NCBI RefSeq assembly: GCF_018282095.1
Contig: NZ_CP074126.1
Coordinates: 3,018,341-3,082,340, forward strand
Direction of reading: 5' to 3'
DNA length: 64,000 bases
Origin: Pseudovibrio brasiliensis
Lineage (GTDB): Bacteria; Pseudomonadota; Alphaproteobacteria; Rhizobiales; Stappiaceae
Shown here in pieces: positions 25,478 through 59,504 of this stretch (position 1 is the stretch's first letter; every line of letters begins with the position of its first letter). The notes below the pieces were generated by a model. The model saw nothing but the letters and a program-made list of their open reading frames with translations, did no database searches and was not told the origin of the DNA. The position numbers and the translations under genes were made by a program.

Positions 25478-25498
25478 GTGCGGCAAGGGGACACAGTA

Positions 25499-27125: not shown

Positions 27126-27138
27126 GGGGTAGGACAAA

Positions 27139-27972: not shown

Positions 27973-27984
27973 GAGGAACGGATC

Positions 27985-28263: not shown

Positions 28264-28265
28264 AG

Positions 28266-29362: not shown

Positions 29363-29405
29363 GCTGCGCCTCCAACGGCTAAACTAGTTAAGCGAGAGAA
29401 AAGCT

Positions 29406-29819: not shown

Positions 29820-29842
29820 TCGGACATCGAAAGGAAAAGGCC

Positions 29843-30043
29843 ATGAAGGCTACCGATGTAAGAGCTAAGACCTCTGATGAGCTCAAGGCAAACCTGGAAG
29901 AGCTGAAAAAAGAACAGTTCAACCTGCGTTTCCAGCGGGCCACCGGTCAGCTCGAAAACACCGCTCGTGTTCGTCAGGTTCGCCGGGACATCGCGCGGAT
30001 CCAGACAGTACTGCGCGAAAAGCGCGTGTCTGACAACGCATAA
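29843..30043 (+). CDS. rpmC: 50S ribosomal protein L29
   Basis: A 66-residue two-helix protein near the tunnel exit. I start it at ATG 29843 ([18 protein letters not shown]), preceded by GAAAGGAAAAGG. The open frame continues upstream to 29789 but would overlap rplP and add unrelated residues. The family motif [18 protein letters not shown] is present. Confidence 0.96.
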
Positions 30044-30053
30044 GGAGCTAATG

Positions 30054-30296
30054 ATGCCAAAGCGTATTTTGCAGGGTGTCGTTGTTAGCGATGCGAACGA
30101 AAAGACAGTAACGGTGAAGGTAGAGCGTCGCTTTACCCACCCATTGCTGAAAAAAGTTGTGCGCCGTACGAAGAAGTATCGTGCACATGACGAAAATAAT
30201 TCTTACAAGGTTGGCGACACAGTTCAGATTGAAGAGTGTGCTCCAATCTCTAAGAATAAGAAATGGACCGTTGTTTCTTCGGAAGCAGCGAGCTAG
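30054..30296 (+). CDS. rpsQ: 30S ribosomal protein S17
   Basis: An 80-residue OB-fold protein that binds 16S rRNA early in assembly. It starts [19 protein letters not shown]; of two adjacent ATG codons (30051, 30054) the second has the better distance to TAAGGAGC. The conserved YRAHDE and [18 protein letters not shown] motifs are present. The frame is open upstream into rpmC but that is not coding. Confidence 0.96.
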
Positions 30297-30355
30297 TGAA
30301 CGCATCCAGCATTTCTAATTTTTTAGATTGCTGAGAAAGAACAAGGCGACGAGTC

Positions 30356-30724
30356 ATGATTCAGATGCAAACAAACCTCGACGTTGCCGATAACAGCGGT
30401 GCGCGTCGTGTCATGTGCATCAAAGTGCTCGGCGGCTCCAAACGGAAGTATGCTGGCGTTGGCGACATCATTGTTGTCTCCGTCAAAGAAGCAATTCCGC
30501 GGGGTCGTGTTAAAAAGGGCGACGTGATGAAAGCGGTCGTCGTGCGCACGGCTAAAGACATCCGTCGTGCAGACGGCAGTGTGATCCGCTTCGACCGCAA
30601 CGCGGCTGTGCTGATCAACAACAACAAAGAACCGATCGGAACACGTATTTTTGGCCCAGTTCCTCGTGAACTGCGTGGCAAGAATCACATGAAGATCATT
30701 TCGCTTGCGCCGGAGGTGCTCTGA
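30356..30724 (+). CDS. rplN: 50S ribosomal protein L14
   Basis: L14 forms an intersubunit bridge and binds the silencing factor RsfS. The 122-residue protein begins [20 protein letters not shown] and includes [15 protein letters not shown] and [11 protein letters not shown]. Its TGA overlaps the rplX ATG. Confidence 0.97.
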
Positions 30725-31041
30725 TGCCCGCGAAGATCAAAAAGGGCGACAAGGTCGTCGTAATTGCCGGTCGTGACAAAGGAAAGACTGGGGAAGTTCT
30801 CCAGATGATCCCATCCGAAAACCGCGCTGTCGTGCGTGGCGTAAACATGGTGAAACGTCACCAGCGCCAGACCCAGCAGAGCGAGGGTGGAATCATCACA
30901 AAGGAAGCTCCAATTCAGCTTTCCAATATTGCCATTGCTGATCCTAAGGATGGCAAGCCGACCCGCGTCGGTTTCACGACTAATGAAGCAGGTAACACCG
31001 TACGTGTTGCTAAGCGTTCAGGAGACGTGATTGATGGCTGA
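30724..31041 (+). CDS. rplX: 50S ribosomal protein L24
   Basis: L24 starts 50S assembly at the 5' end of 23S rRNA. The 105-residue protein has an N-terminal KOW motif ([20 protein letters not shown]) and the conserved [15 protein letters not shown]. The gene overlaps rplN by one base and rplE by 8 bases. Confidence 0.97.
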
Positions 31042-31591
31042 CGCTACTTACACTCCACGGCTCAAAGCGCACTACAATGACGTAGTGCGTGGCCAGCTTC
31101 AGGAGAAGTTTAACTACACCAACTCAATGATGATCCCTTCGGTCGAAAAGATCGTTTTGAACATGGGTGTTGGTGAAGCTGTTGGTGACAGCAAGAAGGC
31201 TCGTATCGCTGCTGAAGATCTGAGCTTGATTGCTGGTCAAAAGGCGGTTATTACCCGTGCTAGAAAATCTATCGCGACCTTTAAGGTTCGTGAAGATATG
31301 CCACTGGGTACTAAAGTTACACTTCGTCGTAACCAGATGTTCGAATTCATGGATCGTTTGATCACCATCGCGCTTCCGCGTGTACGTGACTTCCGCGGCC
31401 TGAATCCGAAGAGCTTCGACGGACGTGGCAACTACGCTATGGGTCTTAAAGAACACATTGTTTTCCCAGAGATTGACTACGATAAAGTAGATCAGATGTG
31501 GGGTATGGACATTGTTGTTTGTACCACAGCGAAAACCGATGACGAAGCGCGTGAACTGCTGCGCGCGTTCAACTTCCCGTTCCGCAAATAA
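31034..31591 (+). CDS. rplE: 50S ribosomal protein L5
   Basis: L5 binds 5S rRNA and contacts the P-site tRNA. The 185-residue protein begins [19 protein letters not shown] at ATG 31034, inside the last codons of rplX; a TTG three bases earlier is less likely. It has [19 protein letters not shown] and the loop [15 protein letters not shown]. Confidence 0.97.
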
Positions 31592-31624
31592 TAGCGGTAT
31601 ACGGGAAAGGAACGAGGACAGACG

Positions 31625-31930
31625 ATGGCGAAGAAAAGCGCGGTCGAGAAAAACAAGCGGCGCGTAGCTCTTGTTAGCAAGTTTGCTGACAAGCGTGCTG
31701 CCCTGAAGGCCATGGCCAAAGACGAGAGCTTGTCCCTTGAGGAGCGTTTCAATGCACGGCTTAAGCTTGCTAAGCTGCCGCGCAATTCCGCGCCTACACG
31801 GGTACGCAACCGGTGTGAAGTCACAGGTCGCCCACGCGGTTATTACCGCAAACTTAAGATGTCGCGTATTGCGCTTCGTGAGTTGGGTTCCCTGGGCAAG
31901 ATCCCGGGTCTCGTGAAGTCGAGCTGGTAA
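31625..31930 (+). CDS. rpsN: 30S ribosomal protein S14, zinc-independent form
   Basis: S14 packs into the 30S head. At 101 residues it is the long form without paired CxxC zinc-binding motifs, so no zinc-free backup paralogue is needed for this gene. The signature [20 protein letters not shown] is present near residues 60-79. Confidence 0.97.
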
Positions 31931-31942
31931 GGAGTTACTGCT

Positions 31943-32341
31943 ATGTCGATTTCCGATCCAGTCGGGGATATGATCACGCGCATCCGTAATGCGCAGATGC
32001 GTCGCAAATCTAAAGTAAGCACACCTGCTTCTAAGTTGCGCGCTCGCATCCTGGACGTTCTGATTTCTGAAGGTTACATCCGCGGTTACACCGCTGTTGA
32101 CTTCGGTGCAGGCAAGTCCGAACTTGAAATTGAACTGAAATACTTTGATGGCGAACCAGTGATCCGCACCATTGAGCGCGTATCTAAGCCTGGTCGTCGC
32201 GTGTATTCTTCAGTCAAGAACATCCCACACGTTGCAAACGGCTTGGGTGTGTCTATTCTGTCAACTCCTCAGGGCGTTATGGCAGACCACGATGCACGTG
32301 AGAAAAATGTGGGTGGTGAAGTACTCTGCCGCGTCTTCTGA
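31943..32341 (+). CDS. rpsH: 30S ribosomal protein S8
   Basis: S8 binds helix 21 of 16S rRNA and represses the spc operon in E. coli. The 132-residue protein starts [19 protein letters not shown] and ends with [19 protein letters not shown] and GGEVLCRVF. 12 bp after rpsN. Confidence 0.97.
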
Positions 32342-32385
32342 CGCGGCATTGCACGATTTAACAAAATAACAGACAGGTTGATCTT

Positions 32386-32919
32386 ATGTCTCGAATTGGC
32401 AAAAAGCCAGTCCCTGTGCCTAGCGGGGTAACGGCAACGATCAACGGCCAGAATGTTATCGTAAAAGGCCCGAAGGGGGAACTCTCCTTCGTGGTCAACG
32501 ATGTCGTTTCGGTCGAAATGACGGATGATGGTATCCGTCTTGATCCGCGCAACCAGTCCAAGACTGCGCGTTCTATGTGGGGTATGTCCCGCACCATGGT
32601 CGCTAACCTCATCACAGGTGTGACCTCCGGCTTCGAAAAGCAGCTGGCGATTACCGGTGTTGGTTACCGTGCACAGGTTCAAGGCAAAACTCTTAATCTT
32701 GCTCTTGGTTTCTCTCACGATGTCAAGTTCGACATTCCTGAGGGTGTAGAAATCAAATGCCCGAAGCCGACAGAAATTGTCATCAACGGCATTAACAAAC
32801 AGCAGATTGGGCAGGTAGCCGCGAACATTCGTGAATATCGCCCGCCTGAGCCATATAAAGGCAAGGGTATTCGTTATGCGGACGAGTTCATCGTTCGTAA
32901 AGAAGGCAAGAAGAAGTAA
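32386..32919 (+). CDS. rplF: 50S ribosomal protein L6
   Basis: L6 lies near the sarcin-ricin loop. The 177-residue protein begins [15 protein letters not shown] and ends with the family motif [14 protein letters not shown]. The middle [17 protein letters not shown] is typical. Precedes rplR by 11 bp. Confidence 0.97.
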
Positions 32920-32930
32920 CGGTACGGACC

Positions 32931-33284
32931 ATGGCGAATGGAAATTCTTTCGAACGTCGTCGCGCCCGTGTGCGCCGTTCGATCCAAAAGGTAGCGAATG
33001 GTCGTCCTCGACTGTCCGTTTTCCGCTCATCCAAGCAGATTTACGCTCAGATCATCGACGATTCCAAGGGTCTGACCCTTGCTTCCGCGTCTACCATTGA
33101 GAAAGACGTGAAAGTAGAATACGGCGGCAACAAAGATGCTGCTGCTGTAGTTGGTAAGCTGATTGCTGAACGCGCTATTGCTGCTGGCATTAAAGAAGTC
33201 GTGTTTGATCGTGGTGGTTACATCTATCATGGCCGTGTAAAGGCCCTGGCAGATGCAGCACGTGAAGGCGGTCTGAACTTCTGA
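32931..33284 (+). CDS. rplR: 50S ribosomal protein L18
   Basis: L18 binds 5S rRNA with L5. The 117-residue protein has a basic N-terminus ([20 protein letters not shown]), [16 protein letters not shown] and the C-terminal [20 protein letters not shown]. Confidence 0.97.
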
Positions 33285-33325
33285 TCGGCGCCTGTAGGTG
33301 CTCCTAGAGAACGGGAAACATTATT

Positions 33326-33889
33326 ATGGCGAGACAGGATAATCGGGATCGTGAAGAGCGCGACAGCGAATTTGTCGATAAGCTTGTTCACATCAACCGC
33401 GTCGCTAAAGTAGTTAAGGGTGGCCGTCGCTTCGGCTTCGCTGCTCTTGTAGTAGTAGGTGACCAGAAGGGCCGTGTAGGCTTTGGTCACGGTAAGGCTC
33501 GTGAAGTGCCTGAAGCCATCCGCAAAGCAACTGAAGCTGCTAAGCGTACTATGGTTCGTGTGCCACTTCGTGAAGGTCGTACTCTTCACCACGATGTTGA
33601 AGGCCGTCACGGCGCAGGTAAAGTTGTACTTCGTGCAGCTCCTGCTGGTACCGGTATCATTGCTGGTGGTCCAATGCGTGCGGTGTTCGAAACACTTGGT
33701 GTTCAGGACGTTGTTGCGAAGTCCCTCGGTACTTCCAACCCGTACAACATGGTTCGTGCAACCTTTGATGCGCTGAAAAAAGAAGACAGCCCGCGTTCTG
33801 TTGCAGCACGTCGTGGTCTCAAGGTATCTTCCTTGCAGGCTCGTCGTCGTGACAACGATGATGCGGCACCAGTAAAGGCTGAGGCGTAA
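33326..33889 (+). CDS. rpsE: 30S ribosomal protein S5
   Basis: S5 acts in decoding accuracy and mRNA unwinding. The 187-residue protein has the double-stranded RNA-binding-like domain with [18 protein letters not shown] and the loop [15 protein letters not shown]; the spectinomycin loop near residues 35-45 ([11 protein letters not shown]) looks normal. Tail is Arg-rich then acidic. Confidence 0.97.
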
Positions 33890-33927
33890 GCCTTAGCTTT
33901 GCTGACTGAAGAACAAGGGTTAGTGTC

Positions 33928-34122
33928 ATGGCTAATACTGAAAAGACTGTAACAGTCGAACAGATCGGTAGCCCGCTTCGCCGTCCTGCTGATCAGCGCG
34001 CAACGCTGGTTGGTCTGGGCCTGAACAAGATGCATCGTCGTCGTACTCTGAAGGATACTCCAGAAGTACGTGGCATGATCCGCAAGGTTCAGCATCTGGT
34101 TCGCGTTGTAGACGAAGCATAA
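33928..34122 (+). CDS. rpmD: 50S ribosomal protein L30
   Basis: A 64-residue L30 protein with the conserved [21 protein letters not shown] and [16 protein letters not shown] pattern (shown in part). It lies between rpsE and rplO, the standard spc-operon position, 19 bp before rplO. Confidence 0.96.
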
Positions 34123-34141
34123 GCGGACCGGGAGAACTACT

Positions 34142-34609
34142 ATGAAGCTCAACGAACTCCGGGATAACCCGGGTGCAAGTCAGGATCGTACCCGCGTAGG
34201 TCGCGGTATCGGTTCTGGTAAGGGCAAGACCGGTGGCCGTGGTGTCAAAGGTCAGAAGTCCCGTTCGGGTGTTGCTATCAAAGGCTTTGAAGGCGGCCAG
34301 ATGCCATTGCATCGTCGTCTTCCTAAGCGCGGCTTCACCAACATCTTTGCTAAGGACCTGAACATTGTGTCCTTGGGTCGTGTTCAGACAGCTATCGATG
34401 CAGGCAAGCTTGATGCTTCCGCACCGGTTACTGTTGAAGCACTTGTAGCAGCTGGCGTTGTTCGCCGCGTTCTGGATGGCGTTCGTCTGCTGTCCGACGG
34501 TGAACTTAAAGCCGCTGTAACATTCGAAATTGCTGGCGCTTCCAAAACTGCTGTTGCAGCAGTTGAAAAAGCAGGCGGCAAGGTCGTAATCAAGGAAGGC
34601 AAGGCTTAA
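34142..34609 (+). CDS. rplO: 50S ribosomal protein L15
   Basis: L15 is a late-assembly protein with a long Gly-rich basic extension: [20 protein letters not shown] near residues 20-39. The 155-residue protein then has [17 protein letters not shown]. Its stop codon lies inside a terminator-like hairpin before secY. Confidence 0.97.
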
Positions 34610-34626
34610 CAGCCTTGTCTTTTTTT
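34600..34626 (+). terminator. Terminator-like hairpin at the rplO-secY junction
   Basis: CAAGGCT (34600-34606), loop TAAC, AGCCTTG (34611-34617), then TCTTTTTTT. The rplO stop TAA forms the loop. The 7-bp stem with a long T-run looks functional, although secY is co-directional 30 bp later. It may partially terminate and lower secY-adk relative to the ribosomal genes. Confidence 0.65.
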
Positions 34627-34657
34627 CGGGGTGTATCCAAACTGACCGGAGCGCGGA

Positions 34658-35998
34658 ATGGCTTCTGCAGCCGAGCAACTTGCTTCAAACCTTAACTTTT
34701 CTGCCTTTGCTAAAGCCGAGGAACTGAAGAAGCGAATCTGGTTCACGCTAGGCGCGCTTCTGGTTTATCGATTCGGAACCTATATCCCTCTGCCTGGAAT
34801 TAATCCTGACGCGCTCGCACAGGCCTTCGGAAACGTACAAACTGGCATTGTTGGCCTGTTTAACATGTTCTCCGGTGGTGCTGTCGAGCGTATGGCTATT
34901 TTTGCCCTCGGCATCATGCCTTACATTTCTGCGTCGATTATCATCCAGCTTATGACTTCCGTTGTTCCTACATTGGAGCAGCTGAAGAAAGAGGGTGAGC
35001 AGGGCCGGAAAAAAATCAACCAGTACACACGTTTTGGTACAGTGATTCTGGCGACCTTCCAGGCTTACGGTATTTCCGTTGGTCTTGAAGCCGGTACGAA
35101 CATTGTTATCGATCCGGGCTGGTTCTTCCGTATTGCAACAGTTCTTACCCTTGTTGGTGGTACTATGTTCCTGATGTGGCTGGGTGAGCAAATCACCTCA
35201 CGCGGCATTGGTAACGGCATTTCTTTGATCATTTTCGCTGGTATTGTTGCCGGGCTTCCTTCTGCGATTGCTTCCACTTTGGAACTTGGTCGTCAGGGTG
35301 CTCTTGCAACTCCGATCATTCTGGCAGTTGTTGTACTGTCCGTTGTGGTTATCGGCGTTATCGTCTTCATGGAACGTGCACAGCGTCGCTTGCTGATTCA
35401 GTATCCACGTCGTCAGCAAGGTAATAAGATGTTTGAGGGGAACACTTCGTTCCTACCGCTCAAACTCAATACGGCAGGTGTTATTCCACCGATTTTTGCA
35501 AGCTCCTTGTTGCTGGTACCAGCGACTGTTTCCAGTTTCCAGGCGGGTGATTCCACTGGTTCTATGGCGTGGTTGACGACAATCACTGCGCTGCTGGGTC
35601 ACGGTCAGCCAGCTTACATGGTTCTTTATGCAGCACTAATCATCTTTTTCTGCTTCTTCTACACTGCGATTGTTTTCAATCCGTCGGAGACAGCAGACAA
35701 CCTCAAGAAGCATGGTGGCTTCATTCCAGGAATTCGTCCAGGCGAACGTACTGCGCAGTACATTGACCATGTGCTAACTCGCATTACGGTTGTCGGTGCA
35801 ATATACATTACTCTCATTTGTTTGTTGCCAGAGTTCCTGATCTCAGCAACGGGTGTGCCGTTCTACTTCGGTGGTACGTCTCTGCTCATTGTTGTTAGCG
35901 TCACCATGGATACCGTTTCTCAGATCCAGGGACACCTTCTTGCTCATCAGTATGAAGGCTTGGTGAAGAAGACGAAGTTGAGGGGGAAACGTAGATGA
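34658..35998 (+). CDS. secY: Preprotein translocase subunit SecY
   Basis: SecY forms the protein-conducting channel with SecE and SecG. The 446-residue protein has about ten hydrophobic spans, the first near residues 23-43, the second-span motif [15 protein letters not shown], and cytoplasmic loop motifs QYTRFGTV and [15 protein letters not shown]. Its end overlaps the adk start (ATGA), so the two are coupled. Confidence 0.97.
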
Positions 35999-36567
35999 GA
36001 TTGATTCTTCTTGGCCCTCCTGGTGCTGGTAAAGGCACTCAGGCAGGTCGACTTGTTGCGGCGCATGGTATTGTTCAGCTTTCCACTGGCGACATGCTTC
36101 GTGCAGCCGTAGCGGCTGAAACCGAAGTCGGCTTGAAGGTCAAAGATGTTCTGACACGTGGCGAACTGGTATCTGATGACCTGATTTGCTCTATCATTTC
36201 TGATCGTATTGATCAGGCTGATTGCGCAAAAGGTTTTATCCTTGACGGTTTCCCGCGGACCATTGCTCAGGCTGACGCTCTTGGCGAACTGCTTGAGAAG
36301 AAAGACCAGAGACTTGATGCTGTTGTTCAGTTGAAAGTTGATGAAGGTATCCTTCTTGAACGTATTGAAACCCGTGCTCGTGAGAGTGCTGAGGTACGTT
36401 CCGATGACAATGCAGAGTCTTTGAAGAAGCGTCTTGCAGTGTACAACGAGCAAACAGCTCCTCTCATTGAATACTACGGTGAGCGGAACATGCTGATGAC
36501 CGTTGATGGCATGAAGTCCGTTGACGAAGTTGCTGCAGAGATCGATACGATTTTGAGCACGGTTTAA
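35995..36567 (+). CDS. adk: Adenylate kinase (short-lid form)
   Basis: Catalyses ATP + AMP to 2 ADP. The 190-residue protein has the P-loop [10 protein letters not shown] (residues 7-16), the AMP-binding [10 protein letters not shown] and [10 protein letters not shown] (about 80-89). The lid between residues 125 and 140 is short and lacks zinc-binding cysteines, which is the common alphaproteobacterial form. Gene overlaps secY by four bases and its stop lies in the loop of a terminator. Confidence 0.97.
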
Positions 36568-36579
36568 TCCGTGCTTTTT
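36556..36579 (+). terminator. Intrinsic terminator overlapping the adk stop
   Basis: AGCACGG (36556-36562), loop TTTAAT containing the stop codon, CCGTGCT (36569-36575), then TTTT. Perfect 7-bp stem. Confidence 0.8.
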
Positions 36580-36580
36580 G

Positions 36581-36608
36581 AAGGCAGGCGCTTGCGCTTG
36601 CCTTTATA
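36581..36608 (+). terminator. Second hairpin after adk
   Basis: AAGGCAGGCG (36581-36590) pairs with CGCTTGCCTT (36595-36604) with one G-T pair and a CTTG loop, followed by TATAATAA. It directly follows the first terminator and could act with it; the trailing TATAAT also resembles a -10 box. Confidence 0.6.
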
Positions 36609-36619
36609 ATAAAGTATAG

Positions 36620-36659
36620 CCGGCGCACATCGACACCATAATCGATTGGCGCCGGTTTT
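36620..36659 (+). promoter_or_regulatory. Third hairpin, rpsM leader
   Basis: CCGGCGC (36620-36626) pairs with GCGCCGG (36649-36655); inside it ATCGA and TCGAT can extend the stem. TTTT follows. It lies 130 bases before rpsM. It could be a third terminator or an S4/S13-type leader element of the alpha operon. Confidence 0.5.
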
Positions 36660-36787
36660 CCTTGGGAAACCGAGGCTGATCTTTTTGCTGTGTGATGGTG
36701 CGCCTTCAACCTGCCGGGTTGTTGGTGTGTTATCGGCAAAAAATGGGAGAGGGGACAACCGTTCCCTCGTAATTGGAGAAAATAAAC

Positions 36788-37156
36788 GTGGCACGTATTG
36801 CTGGCGTCAACCTTCCGACGAATAAGCGCGTAGTTATCGCGCTGCAGTACATTCATGGTATTGGCCCAAAGTTCGCGCAGGAAATCACCGAGAAAGTCGG
36901 TATTGCTGCAGAACGCCGCCTCAACGAACTTTCTGACGCAGAAGTTCTGAAGATCCGTGAAGCAATCGACGCTGAGTACACCGTAGAAGGTGATCTTCGT
37001 CGTGAAACTGCAATGAACATTAAGCGTCTCATGGACCTTGGTTGCTACCGTGGCCTTCGCCACCGTCGTGGTCTTCCTGTTCGTGGTCAGCGCACTCATA
37101 CCAACGCTCGTACCCGTAAGGGTCCTGCAAAAGCGATCGCTGGTAAGAAGAAGTAA
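36788..37156 (+). CDS. rpsM: 30S ribosomal protein S13
   Basis: S13 bridges to the 50S subunit and contacts P-site tRNA. The 122-residue protein reads [20 protein letters not shown] from a GTG codon at 36788, with TTGGAGAA before it; the frame is open back to a TTG at 36773 inside that ribosome-binding site, which I reject. C-terminal tail [18 protein letters not shown] is typical. No rpmJ precedes it. Confidence 0.97.
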
Positions 37157-37220
37157 TTAGCCGGTTATCCGGTGGAGCCGCCGCACTACGGCGGTGAAGA
37201 TATCGAAGTTAGGAAATAGA

Positions 37221-37610
37221 ATGGCTAAAGATTCGACGCGTGTGCGTCGTCGCGAACGGAAGAACATTTCTTCTGGTGTCGCGCATGTGAACTCTACGTT
37301 CAACAACACCATGATCACCATCACCGATGCTCAGGGCAACGCGATCTCTTGGTCGTCTGCCGGCGCGCTCGGCTTTAAGGGTTCTCGTAAGTCTACCCCT
37401 TATGCTGCACAGGTCGCTGCCGAAGACGCTGGTCGTAAGGCTGCTGAACACGGCATGCGTACTCTCGAAGTAGAAGTACGTGGTCCAGGTTCTGGACGTG
37501 AATCCGCTCTGCGTGCGCTTCAGGCTGCAGGTTTCGTTATTACATCTATCCGTGATGTAACTCCGATCCCGCACAACGGTTGCCGTCCACGCAAGCGTCG
37601 CCGCGTCTAA
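37221..37610 (+). CDS. rpsK: 30S ribosomal protein S11
   Basis: S11 lies on the 30S platform near the E-site mRNA. I start the 129-residue protein at ATG 37221 ([15 protein letters not shown]), which follows TTAGGAAA; an earlier in-frame ATG at 37194 overlaps that ribosome-binding site. It has [19 protein letters not shown] and ends [18 protein letters not shown]. Confidence 0.97.
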
Positions 37611-37690
37611 CAGTTCGTTAGGCAAGTTTTCCACCCAGGCAAGGAATTGTTGGCCATTAGGCCTACGGGATAGCCAGAGGGTATTTAAAC

Positions 37691-38713
37691 GTGACAATTC
37701 AGAAAAACTGGCAAGAGCTTATCAAGCCAACCAAACTCGACATTCGTGCTGGCGATGATGCACGCTTCAAAGCTTCTGTGATTGCAGAACCGCTTGAGCG
37801 TGGCTACGGCCTTACTCTTGGCAACGCACTGCGCCGCGTTCTGCTGAGCTCCCTTCAGGGTGCTGCAGTGACCGCTGTTCAGATTGATGGCGTTCTCCAT
37901 GAGTTCTCATCTATTCCTGGCGTTCGTGAAGATGTGACCGACATCATCCTGAACATCAAGGAAGTAGCGCTTCGCATGGAAGGCGAGGGACCAAAGCGCA
38001 TGGTTCTGCGTAAGCAGGGTCCAGGTGCGGTCTACGCTGGTGACATTGAAACTGTAGGTGACATTGAGGTTCTTAACCCAGGTCTGCTGCTGTGTAACCT
38101 TGATGAAGGTGCGGAAGTTCGCATCGAATTCACTGTTAACACCGGCAAGGGTTATGTTCCTGCTGCCGCTAACCGCCCAGAAGACGCTCCAATCGGCCTG
38201 ATTCCGGTTGACAGCCTGTATTCTCCGGTTAAGAAGGTTTCTTACAAGGTTGAGAACACCCGTGAAGGTCAGGTTCTTGACTATGATAAGCTGACTTTGA
38301 CTGTAGAAACTGACGGATCTGTGATCCCTGAAGATGCAGTAGCTTTCGCTGCTCGTATCCTGCAGGATCAGCTGTCTATCTTCGTGAACTTCGAAGAGCC
38401 ACAGCGTGAAGTTCAGGAAGACACAGTTGCAGAACTTGCGTTCAACCCAGCGCTGCTGAAGAAGGTTGATGAGCTTGAGTTGTCTGTACGTTCGGCAAAC
38501 TGCCTGAAGAACGACAATATCGTATATATTGGCGATCTCATTCAGAAGACAGAAGCAGAAATGCTTCGCACACCGAACTTCGGTCGTAAGTCTCTCAACG
38601 AGATCAAAGAAGTTCTGGCGCAGATGGGCCTGCATCTCGGTATGGAAGTGGCAAACTGGCCACCAGAAAATATCGATGAGCTGGCTAAGCGCTACGAAGA
38701 CCACCAATATTAA
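37691..38713 (+). CDS. rpoA: DNA-directed RNA polymerase subunit alpha
   Basis: RpoA dimerises to start polymerase assembly and its C-terminal domain binds UP elements and activators. The 340-residue protein starts from GTG ([18 protein letters not shown]), has the dimerisation motif [18 protein letters not shown] (about residues 36-53) and a C-terminal domain with [19 protein letters not shown] and [17 protein letters not shown]. Confidence 0.98.
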
Positions 38714-38792
38714 AGGAACAGGAGCCGAGTGCTTTGCATGAGGTTCCGGCGGTCTGAAGCAGATCGCAATTGACTTAACAAAGGAGAGGGCC

Positions 38793-39227
38793 ATGCGCCA
38801 CGGTAAATCCGGCCGCAAGCTCAATCGGACGTCAAGCCACCGTAAAGCGATGTTCGCTAACATGGCAGCTTCGCTCATCCAGCATGAGCAGATTGTAACG
38901 ACGCTTCCGAAAGCAAAAGAGATGCGTCCAATCATCGAAAAGCTCATCACTCTGGGCAAGCGCGGCGACCTGCATGCACGTCGTCAAGCAATTTCCCAGA
39001 TCCGTGACACTGCAATGGTATCCAAGCTGTTTGATACCCTCGCAGAGCGTTATGCGGACCGTCAGGGTGGTTACGCTCGCGTACTGAAAGCTGGTTTCCG
39101 TCATGGTGACAATGCACCAATGGCTGTTATCGAGCTGGTTGACCGCGACGTAGAAGCTAAAGGCGCTGCAGACCGTGCACGCGTTGAAGCAGAAGAAGCT
39201 GCAGAAGCAACTGAAGCTGCTGCATAA
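38793..39227 (+). CDS. rplQ: 50S ribosomal protein L17
   Basis: L17 lies near the tunnel exit. The 144-residue protein begins [20 protein letters not shown] and has the conserved [11 protein letters not shown] segment and [20 protein letters not shown]. The last 20 residues are Glu/Ala-rich, as in related alphaproteobacteria. AGGAGAGG precedes the start. Last gene of the alpha operon. Confidence 0.97.
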
Positions 39228-52782: not shown

Positions 52783-54315
52783 ATGAAGGAAGTTCTAGCT
52801 GAATTAGAAAAAAGACGTGATGAAGCGCGGCTTGGTGGGGGACAGCGCCGAATTGATGCGCAGCATAAACGCGGAAAACTCACCGCACGAGAGCGCATTG
52901 AAATTCTGCTAGATGAAGGTTCCTTCGAAGAATTCGATATGTTCAAGCAGCACCGCTGTACCGAGTTTGGTATGGAGGAGACGCACTTCCCGGGTGATGG
53001 TGTTGTTGCTGGTTGGGGTACGGTCAATGGCCGTACGGTTTACCTCTTCTCAAAAGACTTCACCGTGTTTGGTGGTTCGCTTTCCGAGACCCACGCAGAG
53101 AAAATCATGAAGATCCAGGATATGGCGCTGCAGAACCGCGCGCCGATCATTGGTATTTTCGATGCAGGTGGAGCTCGTATTCAGGAAGGTGTTGCGGCAC
53201 TTGGTGGATACGGCGAAGTGTTCTGGCGCAATATTCAGGCGTCTGGTGTTATTCCGCAGATCTCCGTGATCATGGGCCCATGTGCTGGTGGTGATGTGTA
53301 TTCCCCAGCGATGACTGACTTCATCTTCATGGTGCGCGATACATCCTACATGTTCGTGACCGGTCCGGATGTTGTGAAAACCGTGACCAATGAGACTGTG
53401 ACGGCTGAAGAGCTGGGCGGTGCGAGCATTCACACCACCAAGTCCTCCATTGCGGATGGTGCATTTGATAATGACGTGGAAGCGCTGCTGCAGATCCGCC
53501 GTCTGGTGGATTACCTGCCGATGAACAATCAGGCGCCATTGCCTGAGCTTTCCGTTTATGATGATCCGTCCCGTCTGGATGAGAGCCTCAACACGCTGGT
53601 GCCGGATAATCCGAACAAGCCGTATGACATGCGGGAGCTGATCCTGAAGACTGTTGATGAACAGGACTTCTTCGAAATTCAGGAGAGCTTTGCCGGAAAC
53701 ATCATCACGGGCTTTGGCCGTGTTGAAGGGCGTACCGTTGGTATCGTTGCAAACCAGCCAATGGTTCTTGCGGGCGTTCTGGACAGTGATGCGAGCCGTA
53801 AGGCTGCGCGTTTTGTGCGCTTCTGTGACTGCTTCAACATTCCGCTTGTTACATTTGTGGATGTTCCGGGCTTCCTGCCGGGTACAGCGCAAGAATATGG
53901 CGGGTTGATCAAGCACGGCGCAAAACTGCTGTTTGCTTATGGTGAGGCAACTGTTCCGAAGATCACTGTGATCACGCGTAAGGCTTACGGTGGTGCTTAT
54001 GACGTGATGAGCTCCAAGCACATCCGCGGTGATGTGAACTACGCTTGGCCATCTGCTGAGATCGCTGTGATGGGCGCGAAGGGTGCGGTTGAGATCCTGT
54101 ATCGCAATGAGCTGGGTGATCCTGAAAAGATTGCTGAGCGGACAAAGGATTATGAAGACCGGTTCGCGAACCCGTTTGTAGCGGCAGAGCGTGGGTACAT
54201 TGATGAGGTGATCATGCCTCAGTCCACACGGATGCGGATTTCTCGTGCACTGGCAATGCTGCGGACCAAGAACCAGCAGATGCCATGGCGTAAGCACGAC
54301 AATATTCCGCTCTAA
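52783..54315 (+). CDS. pccB: Propionyl-CoA carboxylase carboxyltransferase (beta) subunit
   Basis: Transfers CO2 from carboxybiotin to propionyl-CoA, giving methylmalonyl-CoA. The 510-residue protein has two crotonase-fold halves: the first with [20 protein letters not shown] and [13 protein letters not shown] (acyl-CoA oxyanion site), the second with [16 protein letters not shown] and [16 protein letters not shown]. Length and the [21 protein letters not shown]-terminus match PccB. It pairs with the alpha subunit gene at 57492. A closely related acyl-CoA substrate cannot be excluded. The plus-strand gene ends in a bidirectional terminator. Confidence 0.95.
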
Positions 54316-54342
54316 GACAGAGCTTGTGATTTCTGAAAAATG

Positions 54343-54376
54343 AAAACCCCGGCCTTCGTGAGAAGGTCGGGGTTTT
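54343..54376. terminator. Bidirectional terminator between pccB and the small secreted gene
   Basis: AAAACCCCGGCCTTC, loop GTGA, GAAGGTCGGGGTTTT (one G-T pair). The A-run and T-run on either side let it terminate pccB (plus) and the minus-strand gene that ends at 54418. Confidence 0.93.
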
Positions 54377-54395
54377 GTTGATAGGGGAGAGGGGA

Positions 54396-54414
54396 CTAAC
54401 TTGAGGCGAGTTAG
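54396..54414 (-). promoter_or_regulatory. 3' hairpin of small secreted gene A
   Basis: CTAACT...AGTTAG, 3 bases after the stop codon (minus strand). The equivalent hairpin follows copies B (54811-54833, TTCTAAC/GTTAGAA) and C (55220-55242, CTCTAAC/GTCAGAG, one mismatch). The pairing is kept although the sequence drifts. Confidence 0.65.
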
Positions 54415-54417
54415 ATC

Positions 54418-54717
54418 TTAGTTTTCGTCGTTTTCAACCACACAGGTGTAACCGATGAGGGAATGGTTGGAATCTTTGGTTACAACGTAGGCGCGCTGTG
54501 TTTCTTCGTGTGGGCCACAGAAGGAGCCATTTGCAACATAGCGATCGTAAAGACCTGGACCAGTTGCCAGAACGACTGCGCCTTTATCCTGAACCAGAGC
54601 CTTCACCTGGGAACCTGTGAGGTCTGTTGTGCTTGTGAGGGGAACATTCATTGCCTGAGCAACGGAAGCAGCGGAAACGAGGCCGAGTACGGAAAGGGTT
54701 AGTGCGATCTTTTTCAT
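54418..54717 (-). CDS. Small secreted two-cysteine protein A
   Basis: Unknown function. The 99-residue precursor has a signal peptide (MKKIALTLSVLGLVSAAS, cleavage after AQA at about residue 22). The mature 77 residues carry the family core VVLATGPGLYDRYVA and VVTKDSNHSLIGYTCVVE, with two cysteines (67 and 92). Gly35 and Ser86 stand where the paralogue at 56422-56724 has cysteines, with no gaps in the alignment. It is three residues longer than copies B and C after the signal peptide. An unknown periplasmic or extracellular role is inferred from the signal peptide. It is the last gene of the triplicated block and ends at a shared bidirectional terminator. Confidence 0.88.
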   Translation of the reverse strand: MKKIALTLSVLGLVSAASVAQAMNVPLTSTTDLTGSQVKALVQDKGAVVLATGPGLYDRYVANGSFCGPHEETQRAYVVTKDSNHSLIGYTCVVENDEN

Positions 54718-54759
54718 TGTATTAGCTTTCGGTTTTTAATTCTTATGGGAACTTGGGGA

Positions 54760-54787
54760 GGGAAAGGCCGGAGGCACAGCCTTTCCC
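54760..54787 (-). promoter_or_regulatory. 5' hairpin of small secreted gene A
   Basis: GGGAAAGGC (54760-54768) pairs with GCCTTTCCC (54779-54787). It ends 43 bases upstream of the start codon. Copies B and C have equivalents at the same distance with different stem bases. Confidence 0.7.
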
Positions 54788-54835
54788 TGGGGCTTTGTGA
54801 TGGGGCGTGCTTCTAACTTGGGGCGCGTTAGAAAA

Positions 54836-55126
54836 TCAGCTGTTCTTGTTGTCGACCACGCAGGTGTAACCAATGAGGGAATGGTTGGAGTCTTTGGTTA
54901 CGACGTAAGCGCGCTCTGTTTCTTCGTGAGTTGCGCAATAGGATGCGTTTGCGACAAAGCGATCATAGAGACCAGGGCCAGTTGACAGCACGATTGCGCC
55001 TTTGTCCTGAACGAGTGCTTTTGCTTCAGAAGCAGTCAGGTCACCGGTGTTAACCAGAGCTGCCTGAGCGATGGAAGCAGCGGAAACGAGGCCGAGTACG
55101 GAAAGGGTCAGAGCGATCTTTTTCAT
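54836..55126 (-). CDS. Small secreted two-cysteine protein B
   Basis: Second unit of the triplication, a 96-residue precursor with the same signal peptide (cleavage after AQA) and the core IVLSTGPGLYDRFVA, then KDSNHSLIGYTC. Cysteines at 64 and 89; the missing cysteine positions are Ala32 and Ser83. It differs from copy C at about a dozen residues, including ASEAKAL for ASQAKSL, a Ser/Ala change before TGP and a different acidic/basic C-terminus (VVDNKNS). The ATG is preceded by an AAAGTAAT sequence with no strong ribosome-binding site. Function unknown. Confidence 0.88.
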   Translation of the reverse strand: MKKIALTLSVLGLVSAASIAQAALVNTGDLTASEAKALVQDKGAIVLSTGPGLYDRFVANASYCATHEETERAYVVTKDSNHSLIGYTCVVDNKNS

Positions 55127-55168
55127 TGGGATTACTTTCTATTTTTACAATATGAGTTGTTTTTGAGA

Positions 55169-55198
55169 GGGAAAGACTGGGGAGAAACAGTCTTTCCC
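55169..55198 (-). promoter_or_regulatory. 5' hairpin of small secreted gene B
   Basis: GGGAAAGACTG (55169-55179) and CAGTCTTTCCC (55188-55198), a perfect 11-bp stem with an 8-nt loop, ending 43 bases upstream of the start codon (minus strand). Confidence 0.75.
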
Positions 55199-55244
55199 TA
55201 GGGGCTGATGGGGGAAGCTCTCTAACTTGAGGCGTGTCAGAGGC

Positions 55245-55535
55245 TTAGTTGTCTCTGTTTTCAACTACGCATGTGTAGCCAATGAGGGAGCTGTTGGAGT
55301 CTTTGGTTACGACGTAAGCGCGCTGTGTTTCTTCGTGGGAGGCACAGTAAGAAGCATTTGCGACGTAGCGATCGTAGAGGCCTGGACCAGTTGCGAGGAC
55401 GATTGCGCCTTTGTCCTGTACGAGCGACTTAGCCTGGGAGGCGGTCAGGTCACCGGTGTTCACTAGAGCAGCCTGAGCGATGGAAGCAGCAGAAACGAGG
55501 CCGAGTACGGAAAGGGTCAGAGCGATCTTTTTCAT
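55245..55535 (-). CDS. Small secreted two-cysteine protein C
   Basis: Third unit and promoter-proximal copy, 96-residue precursor. Signal peptide as in copies A and B. Core IVLATGPGLYDRYVA, then VVTKDSNSSLIGYTCVVENRDN, with Cys64 and Cys89; Ala32 and Ser83 replace the other two family cysteines. Upstream lies 550 bp of A/T-rich DNA, which probably holds the promoter for all three copies or for this one. Function unknown. Confidence 0.88.
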   Translation of the reverse strand: MKKIALTLSVLGLVSAASIAQAALVNTGDLTASQAKSLVQDKGAIVLATGPGLYDRYVANASYCASHEETQRAYVVTKDSNSSLIGYTCVVENRDN

Positions 55536-55578
55536 TTGTTTTACTTTCGAATTTATACAGTTTTGGTCATTGTTCAGA

Positions 55579-55606
55579 GGGAGAGACTGGGAGGAGCAGT
55601 CTTTCC
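55579..55606 (-). promoter_or_regulatory. 5' hairpin of small secreted gene C
   Basis: GGGAGAGACTG (55579-55589) pairs with CAGTCTTTCC (55597-55606) with one G-T pair, ending 44 bases upstream of the start codon. The conserved location and covarying stem support a real RNA element. Confidence 0.7.
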
Positions 55607-55608
55607 GA

Positions 55609-56086
55609 TGGGATTTTGCCGATCTTCATTATTATTTCGGCGCGTCTTTTGAATTTAGACTGATGGAAGGCAGTTTTTTGCCCTCTTACATCTTTTTGTC
55701 TTTAGTTATTGTTCTCTTTATCAAGCTATCTTTTGAGTTGTTACTCTAAATCGTTTGCTTGTTGTGTGTTGTTGTTCGTTGGTGATTGTATGTTTACTGG
55801 ATTTTTTTGAGTAAGATGTGTTCTGAAACACAAAATTATCTTTTCGCAACTTTGAATTTTGGTCGGTAACGAATTCGTGTCTTCGTGTTCTTGGGGAATA
55901 CTTGTCTGTCTGTGATGAAGCTCACACTTTTGCTTGTCAGTGGTGCAAAAAAGATGCTGCAACCAATTGTTGGTGACGCGAGCGGTGCTTCTGGCAGGAT
56001 TGGGGATGTGGATTATGGATTCGACAGCATAAGAAGAGGGGCGGGAAAGCCGCCTCTTTTTCCAATGTGTGGATGTTTTGCCGTTC
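55609..56086. other. A/T-rich spacer upstream of the triplicated genes
   Basis: No gene seen in about 480 bp; the open frames here lack any recognisable protein. It is markedly richer in A/T than the surrounding genes. A hairpin AAGAGG-GGCGG/CCGCCTCTT with TTT (about 56034-56062) lies at its right edge. The hairpin could end transcription of the minus-strand gene that stops at 56087. Confidence 0.4.
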
Positions 56087-56407
56087 TTAATCGAAGATGT
56101 CGGAGCCGAAGGGGCCTTCACCGCTGTTGTAGCCGGGTTCACATGAATAGCCGATGAAACAGCGTTTTTGGTCCTTCGTGGGGACCCACCGGCTCATTAA
56201 ACGCTCATAGGGTTGGCAGAACTGCAAGCCTGCTACAAACCGATCGTAAGTTCGGGCACCAGTACTCAATACGATGCCGCCAGCACGCTGAACAACTGAA
56301 CGTGCTTCCAGGCATGACATTTGGCGAGTGTCAGGGCGGGCAAATGCAGAGGTGGAAGCTATGAGGGCCAGAGTGCTCGTTAATACGAGTAGGGTCGATG
56401 TTCTCAT
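56087..56407 (-). CDS. Small secreted four-cysteine protein D
   Basis: A 106-residue precursor with signal peptide (MRTSTLLVLTSTLALIAS, cleavage near AFA at 21-23) and mature RPDTRQMSCLEARSVVQ. The family core is GGIVLSTGARTYDRFVA, WVPTKDQKRCFIGYSC. Cysteines at 32, 64, 83 and 89. The last 15 residues (GYNSGEGPFGSDIFD) are a Gly/Asp-rich tail not seen in the other copies. The start is ATG with GGAGG seven bases upstream; a longer frame to 56497 is rejected because it lacks that site. Unknown function; related sequences occur widely in Hyphomicrobiales in my recollection. Confidence 0.9.
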   Translation of the reverse strand: MRTSTLLVLTSTLALIASTSAFARPDTRQMSCLEARSVVQRAGGIVLSTGARTYDRFVAGLQFCQPYERLMSRWVPTKDQKRCFIGYSCEPGYNSGEGPFGSDIFD

Positions 56408-56421
56408 AGCTTCCTCCTTCT

Positions 56422-56724
56422 TTACTGGTTCTGCCGTGTGCGTGGTGAGCAGCGATAGCCGATCTGGCAGGCGTTGCTGTCTTTTGTCGGAGCCCACTCC
56501 CGGCGCAGGACTTCATTATGAAGGCAGTATCTGATGTCACTGACAAAGCGTTCGTAGGTGCGTGGCCCTGTGGTCAGGACAACACCACCTCGGCTGTTGA
56601 CCAGCTGTTTGGCTTGTTCACATGTCAGGTTGCGTGCATCTGGTCTTGCCTGCGCGTTGGCTGAGCCTACCCACATCAGGGTTATGAGGCTACCGGCAAT
56701 AATAGTGGCGGAGGCATTTCGCAT
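56422..56724 (-). CDS. Small secreted four-cysteine protein E
   Basis: A 100-residue precursor, 14 bp upstream of protein D (minus strand), so probably one operon. Signal peptide cleaved near ANAQA (21-26). Core GGVVLTTGPRTYERFVS and WAPTKDSNACQIGYRC, with Cys35, Cys67, Cys86 and Cys92. The same length and spacing as protein A (no gaps) make the family relationship clear. Function unknown. Confidence 0.9.
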   Translation of the reverse strand: MRNASATIIAGSLITLMWVGSANAQARPDARNLTCEQAKQLVNSRGGVVLTTGPRTYERFVSDIRYCLHNEVLRREWAPTKDSNACQIGYRCSPRTRQNQ

Positions 56725-56862
56725 GGGGTCTTTTGCCTTACAAAGCAGATAAAGAGAGGCTGATAATCAAGCCGCGTTCCATCCGTTTTGCAGGCAAAAG
56801 CCCAAAACTGCGAGTATCAAGGTGAGCCGTGGTTAGCTGGCTCTAAAGAAGAAATGACTGAT
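56725..56862 (-). other. Spacer between folB and the small secreted genes
   Basis: 138 bp without a gene. A ribosome-binding region for protein E lies at the left edge. Nothing else recognised. Confidence 0.3.
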
Positions 56863-57243
56863 TTAACTGTTTGCGGTAGGGCGGGCACGGGTAACTTCCA
56901 CCCCAAAGCCACCGGTATGAACGGGCACCGGAGCAGATGGTTTGTTCACTTTGACGGTGATTTTGGAGATTCGCGCATCCATAGCGAACACTGCATCGCA
57001 AATGGCTCCTGCAAGGCGTTCCAGCAGGTTAAAGCGGGAGTTGGTCACAACATCCTCTACTGTTTTGGCCAGTGTGCCGTAGCAAATGGTGTCTTCATAA
57101 TCGTCTGAAACAGTTGCTTTTTCAAAATCTGCCCAACAGGTGAGGTCAATGATAAAGCGTTGGCCCAACTTGGCTTCTTCATCATGCAGGCCGTGGAATG
57201 CAAAGAATGACAGGCCTTCCAGAAATATCTTGTTTTCATTCAT
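56863..57243 (-). CDS. folB: Dihydroneopterin aldolase
   Basis: Catalyses the retro-aldol step of folate biosynthesis (7,8-dihydroneopterin to 6-hydroxymethyl-dihydropterin and glycolaldehyde). The 126-residue protein matches the family: FAFHGLHDEEAKLGQRF near the start, the substrate-binding Glu in the LLERLAGAICDAVF segment, and the conserved Lys of KVNKPSAP. Its 3' neighbours are not folate genes. Divergent from pccA, so transcription goes away from the carboxylase. Confidence 0.93.
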   Translation of the reverse strand: MNENKIFLEGLSFFAFHGLHDEEAKLGQRFIIDLTCWADFEKATVSDDYEDTICYGTLAKTVEDVVTNSRFNLLERLAGAICDAVFAMDARISKITVKVNKPSAPVPVHTGGFGVEVTRARPTANS

Positions 57244-57491
57244 TGTTTGGCTCCTGAGGGGATCTTCACTGTTGGGGATCTGTGTTGCCAGAGCTGGCGC
57301 AGAAACACAACGTCTTTCCTCGGAAAATGCGCTGCATATAGATGAAAGAGCAGCTCAAATTGCGTTTTGGCAGCGTCTGTTGCCCCTACGAAAGTGCGAT
57401 GGTTCTTCGCCCTATTGTGAGGTTGCGGAAGTGTGTAGAGATGCCTACAACCCTGCACTGTAAATAAAGAAGGTGTGTATGTGGGATGGGC
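57244..57491. promoter_or_regulatory. Divergent folB/pccA promoter region
   Basis: 248 bp between divergent genes, so it must hold promoters for both. A weak GGGATGGG precedes the pccA start. No operator recognised. Confidence 0.35.
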
Positions 57492-59504
57492 ATGTTTTCA
57501 AAGATTCTGATCGCAAACCGTGGGGAAATCGCTTGCCGTGTTATCAAAACGGCGAGATCGATGGGGATCAAAACGGTTGCTGTTTACTCTGATGCGGACC
57601 GGGATGCGCTTCATGTGGAGATGGCTGATGAGGCCGTTCACATTGGTGAGCCGGCAGCAGCGAAATCATACCTTGTGATCGACAAGATTATTGATGCATG
57701 TAAACAGACCGGTGCTGAAGCTGTTCATCCGGGCTATGGCTTCCTTTCCGAGCGCGCAGAGTTTTGCGAGCGCTTGAAGCAGGAAGGTATTGTCTTTATC
57801 GGGCCGAATCCAAAAGCAATCGAGGTGATGGGAGATAAGATCACCTCCAAACGCTTTGCCGCTGATGCTAATGTTTCTACCGTACCAGGCTACATGGGCC
57901 TGATTGAAACTCCGGAAGATGCCAAGCGCATTGCCTCTGAAATCGGTTATCCGGTGATGATCAAGGCCTCCGCCGGTGGTGGCGGTAAAGGCATGCGTAT
58001 CGCCTGGAATGACGAAGAAGCCATGGACGGCTTTGATCGCGCCAAGTCAGAAGCTGTCAGCTCCTTCGGTGATGACCGCATCTTTATTGAAAAATTCATC
58101 GAGAACCCGCGCCACATTGAAATTCAGGTGATGGGCGATAAGCATGGCAATGCGGTCTATCTGGGCGAGCGTGAATGTTCTATTCAACGCCGCAACCAGA
58201 AGGTCATCGAAGAAGCGCCATCTCCATTGCTGGATGAGGAAACTCGTCGCAAGATGGGTGAGCAGGCCGTTGCTCTGGCCAAGGCTGTAGACTACGACAG
58301 TGCTGGTACTGTTGAGTTTGTGGCTGGGCAGGACAAGAGCTTCTACTTCCTTGAAATGAACACCCGCCTGCAGGTGGAGCATCCGGTGACTGAACTGGTC
58401 ACCGGTGTTGACCTTGTTGAGCAGATGATCCGTGTTGCCGCTGGAGAAGAACTCTCCATGAAGCAGGATGATGTAAAGCTGAATGGTTGGTCAGTTGAAA
58501 GCCGCATCTATGCGGAAGATCCTTACCGCAACTTCCTGCCGTCTATTGGTCGCCTGACACGTTATCGTCCACCTGTTGAAGGTGAGCATGACGGATACGT
58601 GGTTCGTAATGACACCGGTGTTGTTGAAGGCTCCGAGATCTCCATGTTCTACGATCCTATGATCGCGAAACTGGTGACTTATGCGCCGACCCGTGCTGAA
58701 GCCATTGAGGGTATGAGCACTGCACTTGATGAGTTCCAGGTGGATGGCATTCAGCACAACGTGCCGTTCCTTGCATCCTTAATGAAGCATCCGCGCTGGC
58801 GCTCTGGGCAGCTGGCCACGAGCTTTATTGCTGATGAATATCCGGATGGCTTTGAGCCAGCGACACCGGATGCGGAAGCCCGCAGTGTGTTGGCGTCTGT
58901 AGCGCTTTCCATGCACCTGATTGAGCGTGAGCGTCTGGATCATCTGCCGGGCCGTCTGCGTCCGCATCATGGCGGTGTGCGTCGTGAGTGGGGTGTGCTG
59001 ATCAATGGTGAGAAGCTGGATGCTGAGCTGATTGAAGGCATGGCTGTTACGCCGCTTGATATCGATGTTTGTGTCGAAGGCAGTCCACGTGCCCGTGTTG
59101 CTTCTTCCTGGGGTCCAGGTGACATGCTCTGGAAAGGGCAGGTTGGTGAGCGTAATGTGAGTGTTCAGGTGCGCCCGGTTGAAAACGGCTATCAGCTGGA
59201 CTGGCAGGGCTATTCTGTTGTTGCCAAGGTGATGACACCACGCAATGCTGAACTCGCTGCTCTGATGCCTGAGAAGGTTGCTCCGGACACATCTAACCTA
59301 CTCCTTTGCCCAATGCCGGGTCTTGTTGTCTCGCTTCACGTGGAAGAAGGACAGGAAGTCAAAGCTGGTGAGCAGCTTGCCATTGTTGAAGCCATGAAAA
59401 TGGAAAATGTGCTTCGGGCAGAACGCGATTGTGTGGTAAGCGCTATCAAGGCTGCTCCGGGCGACAGTCTGGCAGTAGATGCCGTTATCATGGAATTTGA
59501 ATAA
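57492..59504 (+). CDS. pccA: Propionyl-CoA carboxylase biotin-carboxylase/carrier (alpha) subunit
   Basis: ATP-dependent carboxylation of biotin, then transfer with PccB. The 670-residue protein has a biotin carboxylase domain (1-450) with the Gly-rich loop ASAGGGGKGMRIAW (about 155-170), the ATP-grasp motif EMNTRLQVEHPVTE, a central BT-type domain (about 480-590), and a C-terminal biotinyl domain with EAMKMEN, where the biotinylated Lys is residue 636. I start at ATG 57492 (MFSKILIANRGEIACRV), with an alternative ATG at 57486. The domain content matches PccA more than AccC or pyruvate carboxylase. It is separated from pccB by 3.2 kb containing minus-strand genes. Confidence 0.94.
   Translation: MFSKILIANRGEIACRVIKTARSMGIKTVAVYSDADRDALHVEMADEAVHIGEPAAAKSYLVIDKIIDACKQTGAEAVHPGYGFLSERAEFCERLKQEGIVFIGPNPKAIEVMGDKITSKRFAADANVSTVPGYMGLIETPEDAKRIASEIGYPVMIKASAGGGGKGMRIAWNDEEAMDGFDRAKSEAVSSFGDDRIFIEKFIENPRHIEIQVMGDKHGNAVYLGERECSIQRRNQKVIEEAPSPLLDEETRRKMGEQAVALAKAVDYDSAGTVEFVAGQDKSFYFLEMNTRLQVEHPVTELVTGVDLVEQMIRVAAGEELSMKQDDVKLNGWSVESRIYAEDPYRNFLPSIGRLTRYRPPVEGEHDGYVVRNDTGVVEGSEISMFYDPMIAKLVTYAPTRAEAIEGMSTALDEFQVDGIQHNVPFLASLMKHPRWRSGQLATSFIADEYPDGFEPATPDAEARSVLASVALSMHLIERERLDHLPGRLRPHHGGVRREWGVLINGEKLDAELIEGMAVTPLDIDVCVEGSPRARVASSWGPGDMLWKGQVGERNVSVQVRPVENGYQLDWQGYSVVAKVMTPRNAELAALMPEKVAPDTSNLLLCPMPGLVVSLHVEEGQEVKAGEQLAIVEAMKMENVLRAERDCVVSAIKAAPGDSLAVDAVIMEFE

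What the first reader, a model, noticed from the sequence alone, without database searches (positions are those of the whole stretch)
54396..56724. Five-member family of small secreted proteins with paired loss of two cysteines
Five minus-strand genes encode signal peptide plus 70-80 mature residues sharing the core VL.TGP..YDRFVA ... TKDS....IGY.C. Proteins D and E have four cysteines (E: 35, 67, 86, 92). The three tandem copies (A, B, C) keep only the second and fourth; the first has become Gly or Ala and the third Ser. A and E align residue for residue without a gap, so both changes are exact substitutions. Joint loss suggests that Cys1-Cys3 form one disulfide and Cys2-Cys4 the other. I do not know a function for this family.
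Basis: partly seen in the sequence, partly recalled or inferred. Interest (0 to 1): 0.75.

Follow-up and report, generated by a model that had tools for sequence, protein, structure and literature searches.

The report
A bacterium close to the marine genus Pseudovibrio carries five related small secreted proteins of a family that the protein libraries searched do not hold; three of them lack one likely disulfide bond, are acidic and use the codons of heavily made proteins.

Summary
In detail: five minus-strand genes (E, D, C, B, A) at 54418-56724, C1 and C3 both absent in A, B and C, A and E in exact register. The family matched no entry convincingly in Pfam, NCBIfam, PHROGs or the PDB. It occurs in 87 of 87 genomes of the own family and 88 of 397 sampled in the order; in a class sample 3 of 385 matched, all of the same order, the own genome among them. 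But trees allow a single joint loss (AU p 0.29). Ten relatives of another family lack C4, carry an extra Cys after C2 and keep C1 and C3, which fits the pairing. AlphaFold gives a helix plus four strands for E and A; cysteine distances could not be read. Beyond the finding: two-Cys proteins are mostly acidic (median charge -3 against +4) and, in the genus, have higher codon adaptation; A-C reach the ribosomal-protein range. A conserved hairpin precedes A, B and C. Function is unknown; a non-enzymatic envelope protein is my guess.

The parts
56422..56724 (-). gene E: four-Cys member, 100 aa, signal-peptide-like N-terminus
   Evidence: AlphaFold model of the mature part, mean pLDDT 89.5
56087..56407 (-). 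gene D: four-Cys member, 106 aa from ATG
55245..55535 (-). gene C: two-Cys member (C2 and C4 kept), 96 aa, CAI 0.70
54836..55126 (-). gene B: two-Cys member, 96 aa, CAI 0.76
54418..54717 (-). gene A: two-Cys member, 99 aa, CAI 0.70
   Evidence: AlphaFold model of the mature part, mean pLDDT 86.2
55580..55606 (-). hairpin upstream of gene C
   Evidence: inverted repeat I11, 90% complementary; conserved stem with compensating changes
55168..55199 (-). hairpin upstream of gene B, 12 perfect pairs
   Evidence: inverted repeat I4; the only exact match of the searched pattern in the genome
54759..54788 (-). hairpin upstream of gene A, 10 perfect pairs
   Evidence: inverted repeat I9
54343..54376 (-). 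terminator-like inverted repeat after gene A (15-nt arms, 93% complementary, T-rich after it)
   Evidence: inverted repeat I3, sequence; not listed by the terminator scan
56040..56054 (-). terminator-like stem after gene D
   Evidence: consensus match only (6 sites found in the region, 4.3 expected by chance)
56863..57243 (-). folB (dihydroneopterin aldolase), co-directional neighbour upstream of E
   Evidence: Pfam FolB E 4.2e-36; found in 18 of 67 loci compared, all of the own family

Best explanation
The five genes belong to a family of small exported proteins, found so far only in one order (Hyphomicrobiales), that fold as one helix plus four strands. In most members two disulfides staple the fold: C1-C3 ties the start of the helix to the start of the last strand, and C2-C4 ties the loop after strand 2 to the same strand. 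C2-C4 is the staple kept in A, B and C. After duplication, a branch (A, B, C here, one protein of another genus of the own family, and a set in family f44) lost C1 and C3 together and became mostly acidic; in Pseudovibrio it also came to use optimal codons, which implies heavy production. I infer that the four-Cys proteins are low-abundance envelope proteins and that A-C are an abundant, simplified form doing non-enzymatic work (binding or packing) in the periplasm or outside the cell. Shown: homology, the joint Cys pattern, the predicted fold, codon bias, the charge difference. Inferred: the disulfide pairing, the direction of change (loss), export, high expression. The cellular role is a guess (about 0.3).
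For: Cys pattern 246 both / 42 neither / 0 single of 288; total Cys of the mature part even in 276 of the 277 CCCC or two-Cys rows. Ten relatives in family f44 lack C4 but carry another Cys 9 (nine rows) or 5 (one row) residues after C2 and keep C1 and C3, as expected if C1-C3 and C2-C4 are units. AlphaFold: E helix 11-21, strands 23-29, 32-37, 47-54, 62-70; A has the same elements shifted by two residues. CAI against 23 ribosomal-protein genes of the window: A 0.70, B 0.76, C 0.70, E 0.48, D 0.42; ribosomal leave-one-out median 0.72. Same split across loci of the own genus: 22 two-Cys median 0.66, 26 four-Cys median 0.50. Mature net charge: four-Cys median +4 (n 235), two-Cys median -3 (n 42); A -4, B -3, C -2, D +2, E +6.
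Against: The joint loss may be a single event, and joint loss with later re-pairing of C2 and C4 would look the same. Cys-Cys distances were not measured. Only one of five AlphaFold models of A is confident (86.2; the others 61 to 70), and two of five for E are poor. The codon test does not correct for shared ancestry; 5 of 20 long background ORFs of the window have higher CAI than B and 6 of 20 higher than A or C. Charge ranges overlap (four-Cys -5 to +11, two-Cys -9 to +8). One four-Cys protein of the genus, L021 1886-2314, also has CAI 0.70, so high codon bias does not need the Cys loss. No conserved operon partner points to a role.
Confidence: 0.6

Rival explanations
1. The pairing differs in the four-Cys proteins (for example C1-C2 and C3-C4); when C1 and C3 were lost, C2 and C4 simply re-paired. 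The joint loss then reflects one historical event and not the bond pattern.
For: One origin of the two-Cys state is not rejected, so there may be just one event; no distances were measured.
Against: None of 288 homologues lacks a C1-C2 or C3-C4 pair as a unit, and the ten relatives without C4 have a Cys close to C2 while keeping C1 and C3. The helix start and the start of strand 4 suit a C1-C3 bond, though this is only topology.
Confidence: 0.15
2. The two-Cys genes are an adaptation to heavy production: losing a disulfide eases the load on the oxidative folding machinery when a protein is made in bulk, and the biochemical role is unchanged from the four-Cys form.
For: Two-Cys genes have higher codon adaptation in the genus; fold prediction is the same for both.
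Against: The charge also differs, basic against acidic, which suggests a change of partner or place too; a four-Cys gene with equally high CAI exists (L021).
Confidence: 0.35
3. The proteins are inhibitors or toxins aimed at other organisms (small, exported, disulfide-bonded, duplicated in tandem).
For: Size, signal-peptide-like start, several copies in many genomes.
Against: Present in every one of 87 genomes of the family; the recurring neighbours are folB, carboxylase and other genes of the block, not immunity or transport genes; no phage match; Pfam toxin names only at chance level (Toxin_7, best E 0.025, 2 of 56 members). PADLOC was not searched.
Confidence: 0.1

Closest known systems
No family in Pfam-A, NCBIfam or PHROGs
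   Same: nothing found that covers the domain in the members as a group
   Different: Pfam: best over 56 members E 0.0083 (bpX5, 2 members); NCBIfam: best E 0.00017 in 1 of 56 members, to HisH, an unrelated enzyme; PHROGs: none for E and A, the only two scanned
Hypothetical protein WP_112715777.1 of Rhizobium sp. BG4 plasmid pRPC2
   Same: homologue of E by tblastn, 37.7% identity over 57% of E, E 7e-5
   Different: annotated only as hypothetical protein, in a stretch with Hsp20 and treY genes
Small disulfide-bonded periplasmic proteins of proteobacteria as a general class (recalled)
   Same: signal-peptide-like start, about 70-80 mature residues, even Cys number
   Different: no convincing sequence or fold match to a solved structure

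Membership tests
Any Pfam-A or NCBIfam family | score above the curated cut-off | tested here: not met
   for the five window proteins every listed match is below its cut-off. For the 56 members of A2 the tables give E-values only, cut-offs not shown; matches are to unrelated families in 1 or 2 members each
A fold already in the PDB | Foldseek or VIA-align match to a solved structure | tested here: not met
Sec-exported disulfide-bonded small proteins (descriptive class) | N-terminal signal peptide | tested here: inconclusive
   by eye: Lys/Arg start, hydrophobic stretch, small residues before the mature part; no signal-peptide predictor was available. A loose lipobox-like pattern fits 17 of 288, not looked into
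Sec-exported disulfide-bonded small proteins (descriptive class) | even number of conserved cysteines | tested here: met
   42 of 42 two-Cys rows have 2; of 235 CCCC rows 231 have 4, 3 have 6, 1 has 5
Sec-exported disulfide-bonded small proteins (descriptive class) | disulfides formed in the mature protein | not testable with these tools
   needs mass spectrometry or a solved structure

The most novel reading that the evidence does not exclude
An undescribed exported protein family, found only in one order, present in every tested genome of its home family and with a small fold not matched in the PDB, has split into a basic, weakly expressed two-disulfide form and an acidic one-disulfide form made at close to ribosomal-protein levels, with a conserved RNA hairpin before nearly every copy of the latter in the genus: a natural series for watching a protein shed a disulfide as its expression rises.
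Probability: 0.5. Interest if true: 0.55.

Novelty: new member of a known kind. Interest (0 to 1): 0.4.

Why it matters
A family found in all 87 tested genomes of its bacterial family, yet not matched in Pfam, NCBIfam or the PDB, deserves a name and a knock-out. If the codon signal is right, A-C are among the most heavily made exported proteins of this sponge- and coral-associated genus (habitat recalled), and the paired forms allow a direct test of what one disulfide buys a small exported protein.

Tried and rejected
Empty or rejected: Pfam, NCBIfam, PHROGs; PDB by sequence; PDB and viral folds (best E 3.2, none, 1.5 and 0.69); viral contigs (30 pattern stretches, no relative); phage records; Rfam over 53900-57600 (two matches, both far below gathering score). 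A conserved operon partner: neighbours in 67 loci compared; the genes that recur in 9 or more loci (folB, carboxylase genes and other genes of the same block) do so only within the own family, and one ABC-ATPase cluster recurs in 6 loci of four families without being specific. General-stress promoter (EcfG motif, recalled): 8 of 290 upstream stretches against 2.4 expected, none of them in the own genus, so not supported for these genes. Paper searches: zero, 1, zero, 14, zero and 815 papers; only listings and the openings of listed abstracts were seen, no paper was opened, and nothing seen treats this family.

Errors of mine: one search gave loci missing from the origin file (those after L137) a wrong default genus, so its g1 rows mix genera, on loci of the own genus only (named and unnamed), replaces it. 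One search was an uninformed pattern and found nothing. The ribosomal genes were recognised from operon order and recalled N-termini, with one Pfam match; some of the 20 background ORFs there may be antisense.

Rows dropped before counts: 11 of 299 (locus edges; frameshifted copies L027 and L147); 3 of 157. The 246 are 235 CCCC, ten without C4 but with another Cys, and one cut at a locus end (L204). In the hairpin alignment A5, 20 of the 22 upstream regions listed were used plus that of window gene C; the two of L072 were left out, and regions from f44 were not aligned (one search shows no such stem there).

Full report
What is there. Five co-directional genes on the minus strand lie between folB and a carboxylase gene (the carboxylase by recall). 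E and D are 14 bases apart; C starts about 550 bases after D; B and A each follow after a 118-base gap. The translations show a Lys/Arg start, a hydrophobic stretch and small residues before a shared core. No sixth copy was found in the genome. Named relatives place it in or beside Pseudovibrio, for example L037 of Pseudovibrio denitrificans with an identical E protein.

How far the family reaches. A profile of the five finds a match in 87 of 87 genomes of the own family and 64 of 297 sampled in the order; a broader profile finds 88 of 397 in the order, spread over 13 family labels. In a class-wide sample 3 of 385 genomes matched: the own genome and two others of the same order. In some searches only the 12 best first-look candidates per genome were scored, and at most 17, so weak relatives could be missed. 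Named homologues on plasmids and large replicons: 8 records, Microvirga 6, Methylobacterium 1, Rhizobium 1. No curated family was found that covers them.

The cysteines. From 452 hits in the fetched loci I kept 299 distinct domains, 288 of them near-complete. Both C1 and C3: 246. Neither: 42. Only one: 0. Of the 42, 22 come from the own genus, 19 from family f44 and one (L221) from another genus of the own family. In them position 1 is Ala, Thr, Gly, Ser, Asp, Lys or Val and position 3 Ser, Ala, Gly or Glu, so the change is old and the residues have drifted. C2 and C4 are present in all 42. Ten sequences of family f44 (L146, L148 twice, L150 twice, L151, L153, L154, L156, L157) lack C4 but have another Cys 9 residues (5 in L157) after C2 and keep C1 and C3. 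Both kinds of change treat C1/C3 as a unit.

How strong that is. On trees without the two columns the two-Cys state needs two changes, one forced by strong branches, and a single clade is not rejected (AU p 0.294, 32 rows against 122). As a rough gauge of mine, the stem of the Pseudovibrio two-Cys branch is 0.228 of a total tree length of 84.2, so two unrelated losses would rarely fall on the same branch; but this rests on a poorly resolved tree of 68 columns. I hold the C1-C3 / C2-C4 pairing at about 0.8.

Fold. AlphaFold models: mature E mean pLDDT 89.5, pTM 0.74, two of five models poor; mature A 86.2, pTM 0.71, only one of five confident. Both give a helix and four strands in the same register. 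In E, C1 (mature 11) starts the helix, C2 (43) lies in the loop after strand 2, C3 (62) starts and C4 (68) lies within strand 4. C3 and C4 are six residues apart in that strand and so should face the same side. Distances could not be read. No solved or viral structure matches.

Two classes. Codon adaptation to 23 ribosomal-protein genes in the window is 0.70, 0.76 and 0.70 for A, B and C, against 0.48 and 0.42 for E and D; ribosomal genes themselves range 0.58 to 0.82 by leave-one-out. Five of 20 long background ORFs exceed B. Over loci of the own genus, 22 distinct two-Cys genes run from 0.54 to 0.75 and 26 four-Cys genes from 0.38 to 0.70 (Mann-Whitney p 5e-8, not corrected for kinship). The one four-Cys gene at 0.70 (L021 1886-2314) sits beside the two-Cys rows in the first tree, which hints that codon optimisation came before the Cys loss; but its branch is long, and in the second tree it is flagged as joining other long branches. 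Mature net charge is +4 in the median of 235 four-Cys proteins and -3 in 42 two-Cys proteins, with overlapping ranges.

Hairpins. Upstream of A, B and C lies a stem of about ten pairs ending some 40 bases before the start codon. In 21 upstream regions of the genus (20 distinct) the nine-pair core is 95.9% paired, and five pairs have changes on both sides, against a mean of 1.8 in shuffles (1 of 500 reach it); sliding the partner drops pairing to 40-57%; the number of further pair types, 10 against 8.8, does not stand out (124 of 500 shuffles reach it). One row (L015) has a gap there and lacks the stem. The searched pattern, modelled on gene B's hairpin, matches only at that place in the genome; the stems before A and C differ from it. 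Its role is unknown; an mRNA stabiliser would fit the codon bias.

Mechanism, stated with its limits. I think these are exported, non-enzymatic mini-domains; no conserved set of catalytic residues stands out (positions of E conserved in over 85% of four-Cys rows, besides Cys: R27, G46, T52, G53, V61, D82, with R59 at 82%). A-C are the bulk form. What they bind is not known, and nothing in the neighbourhood tells.

Noticed in passing
window 54652-54717, 55061-55126, 55470-55535: The signal-peptide part of A, B and C is nearly identical in DNA (B against C 64 of 66 bases, 14 of 16 four-fold sites) while the mature part is not (21 of 38 four-fold sites); in another strain (Alg231-02) copies B and C share silent changes of their own, which looks like gene conversion of the 5' part.
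   Followed up: partly
window 54396-54414 and after the stops of B and C: A short CTAAC...GTTAG inverted repeat follows the stop codon of A, and a similar one that of B; C has only the GTTAG half by eye. It may be a processing or termination element.
   Followed up: no
L147 (G758) and L027 (G061): Two relatives look like frameshifted, decaying copies; the L147 copy has also lost C4.
   Followed up: no
L290 (Rhizobium sp. BG4 plasmid pRPC2): The homologue lies in a stretch with Hsp20 and treY genes, a stress-type neighbourhood; a motif scan did not support stress control of the window genes.
   Followed up: partly
window 25169-39227: A ribosomal protein gene cluster lies in the same window and served as the codon reference.
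   Followed up: yes
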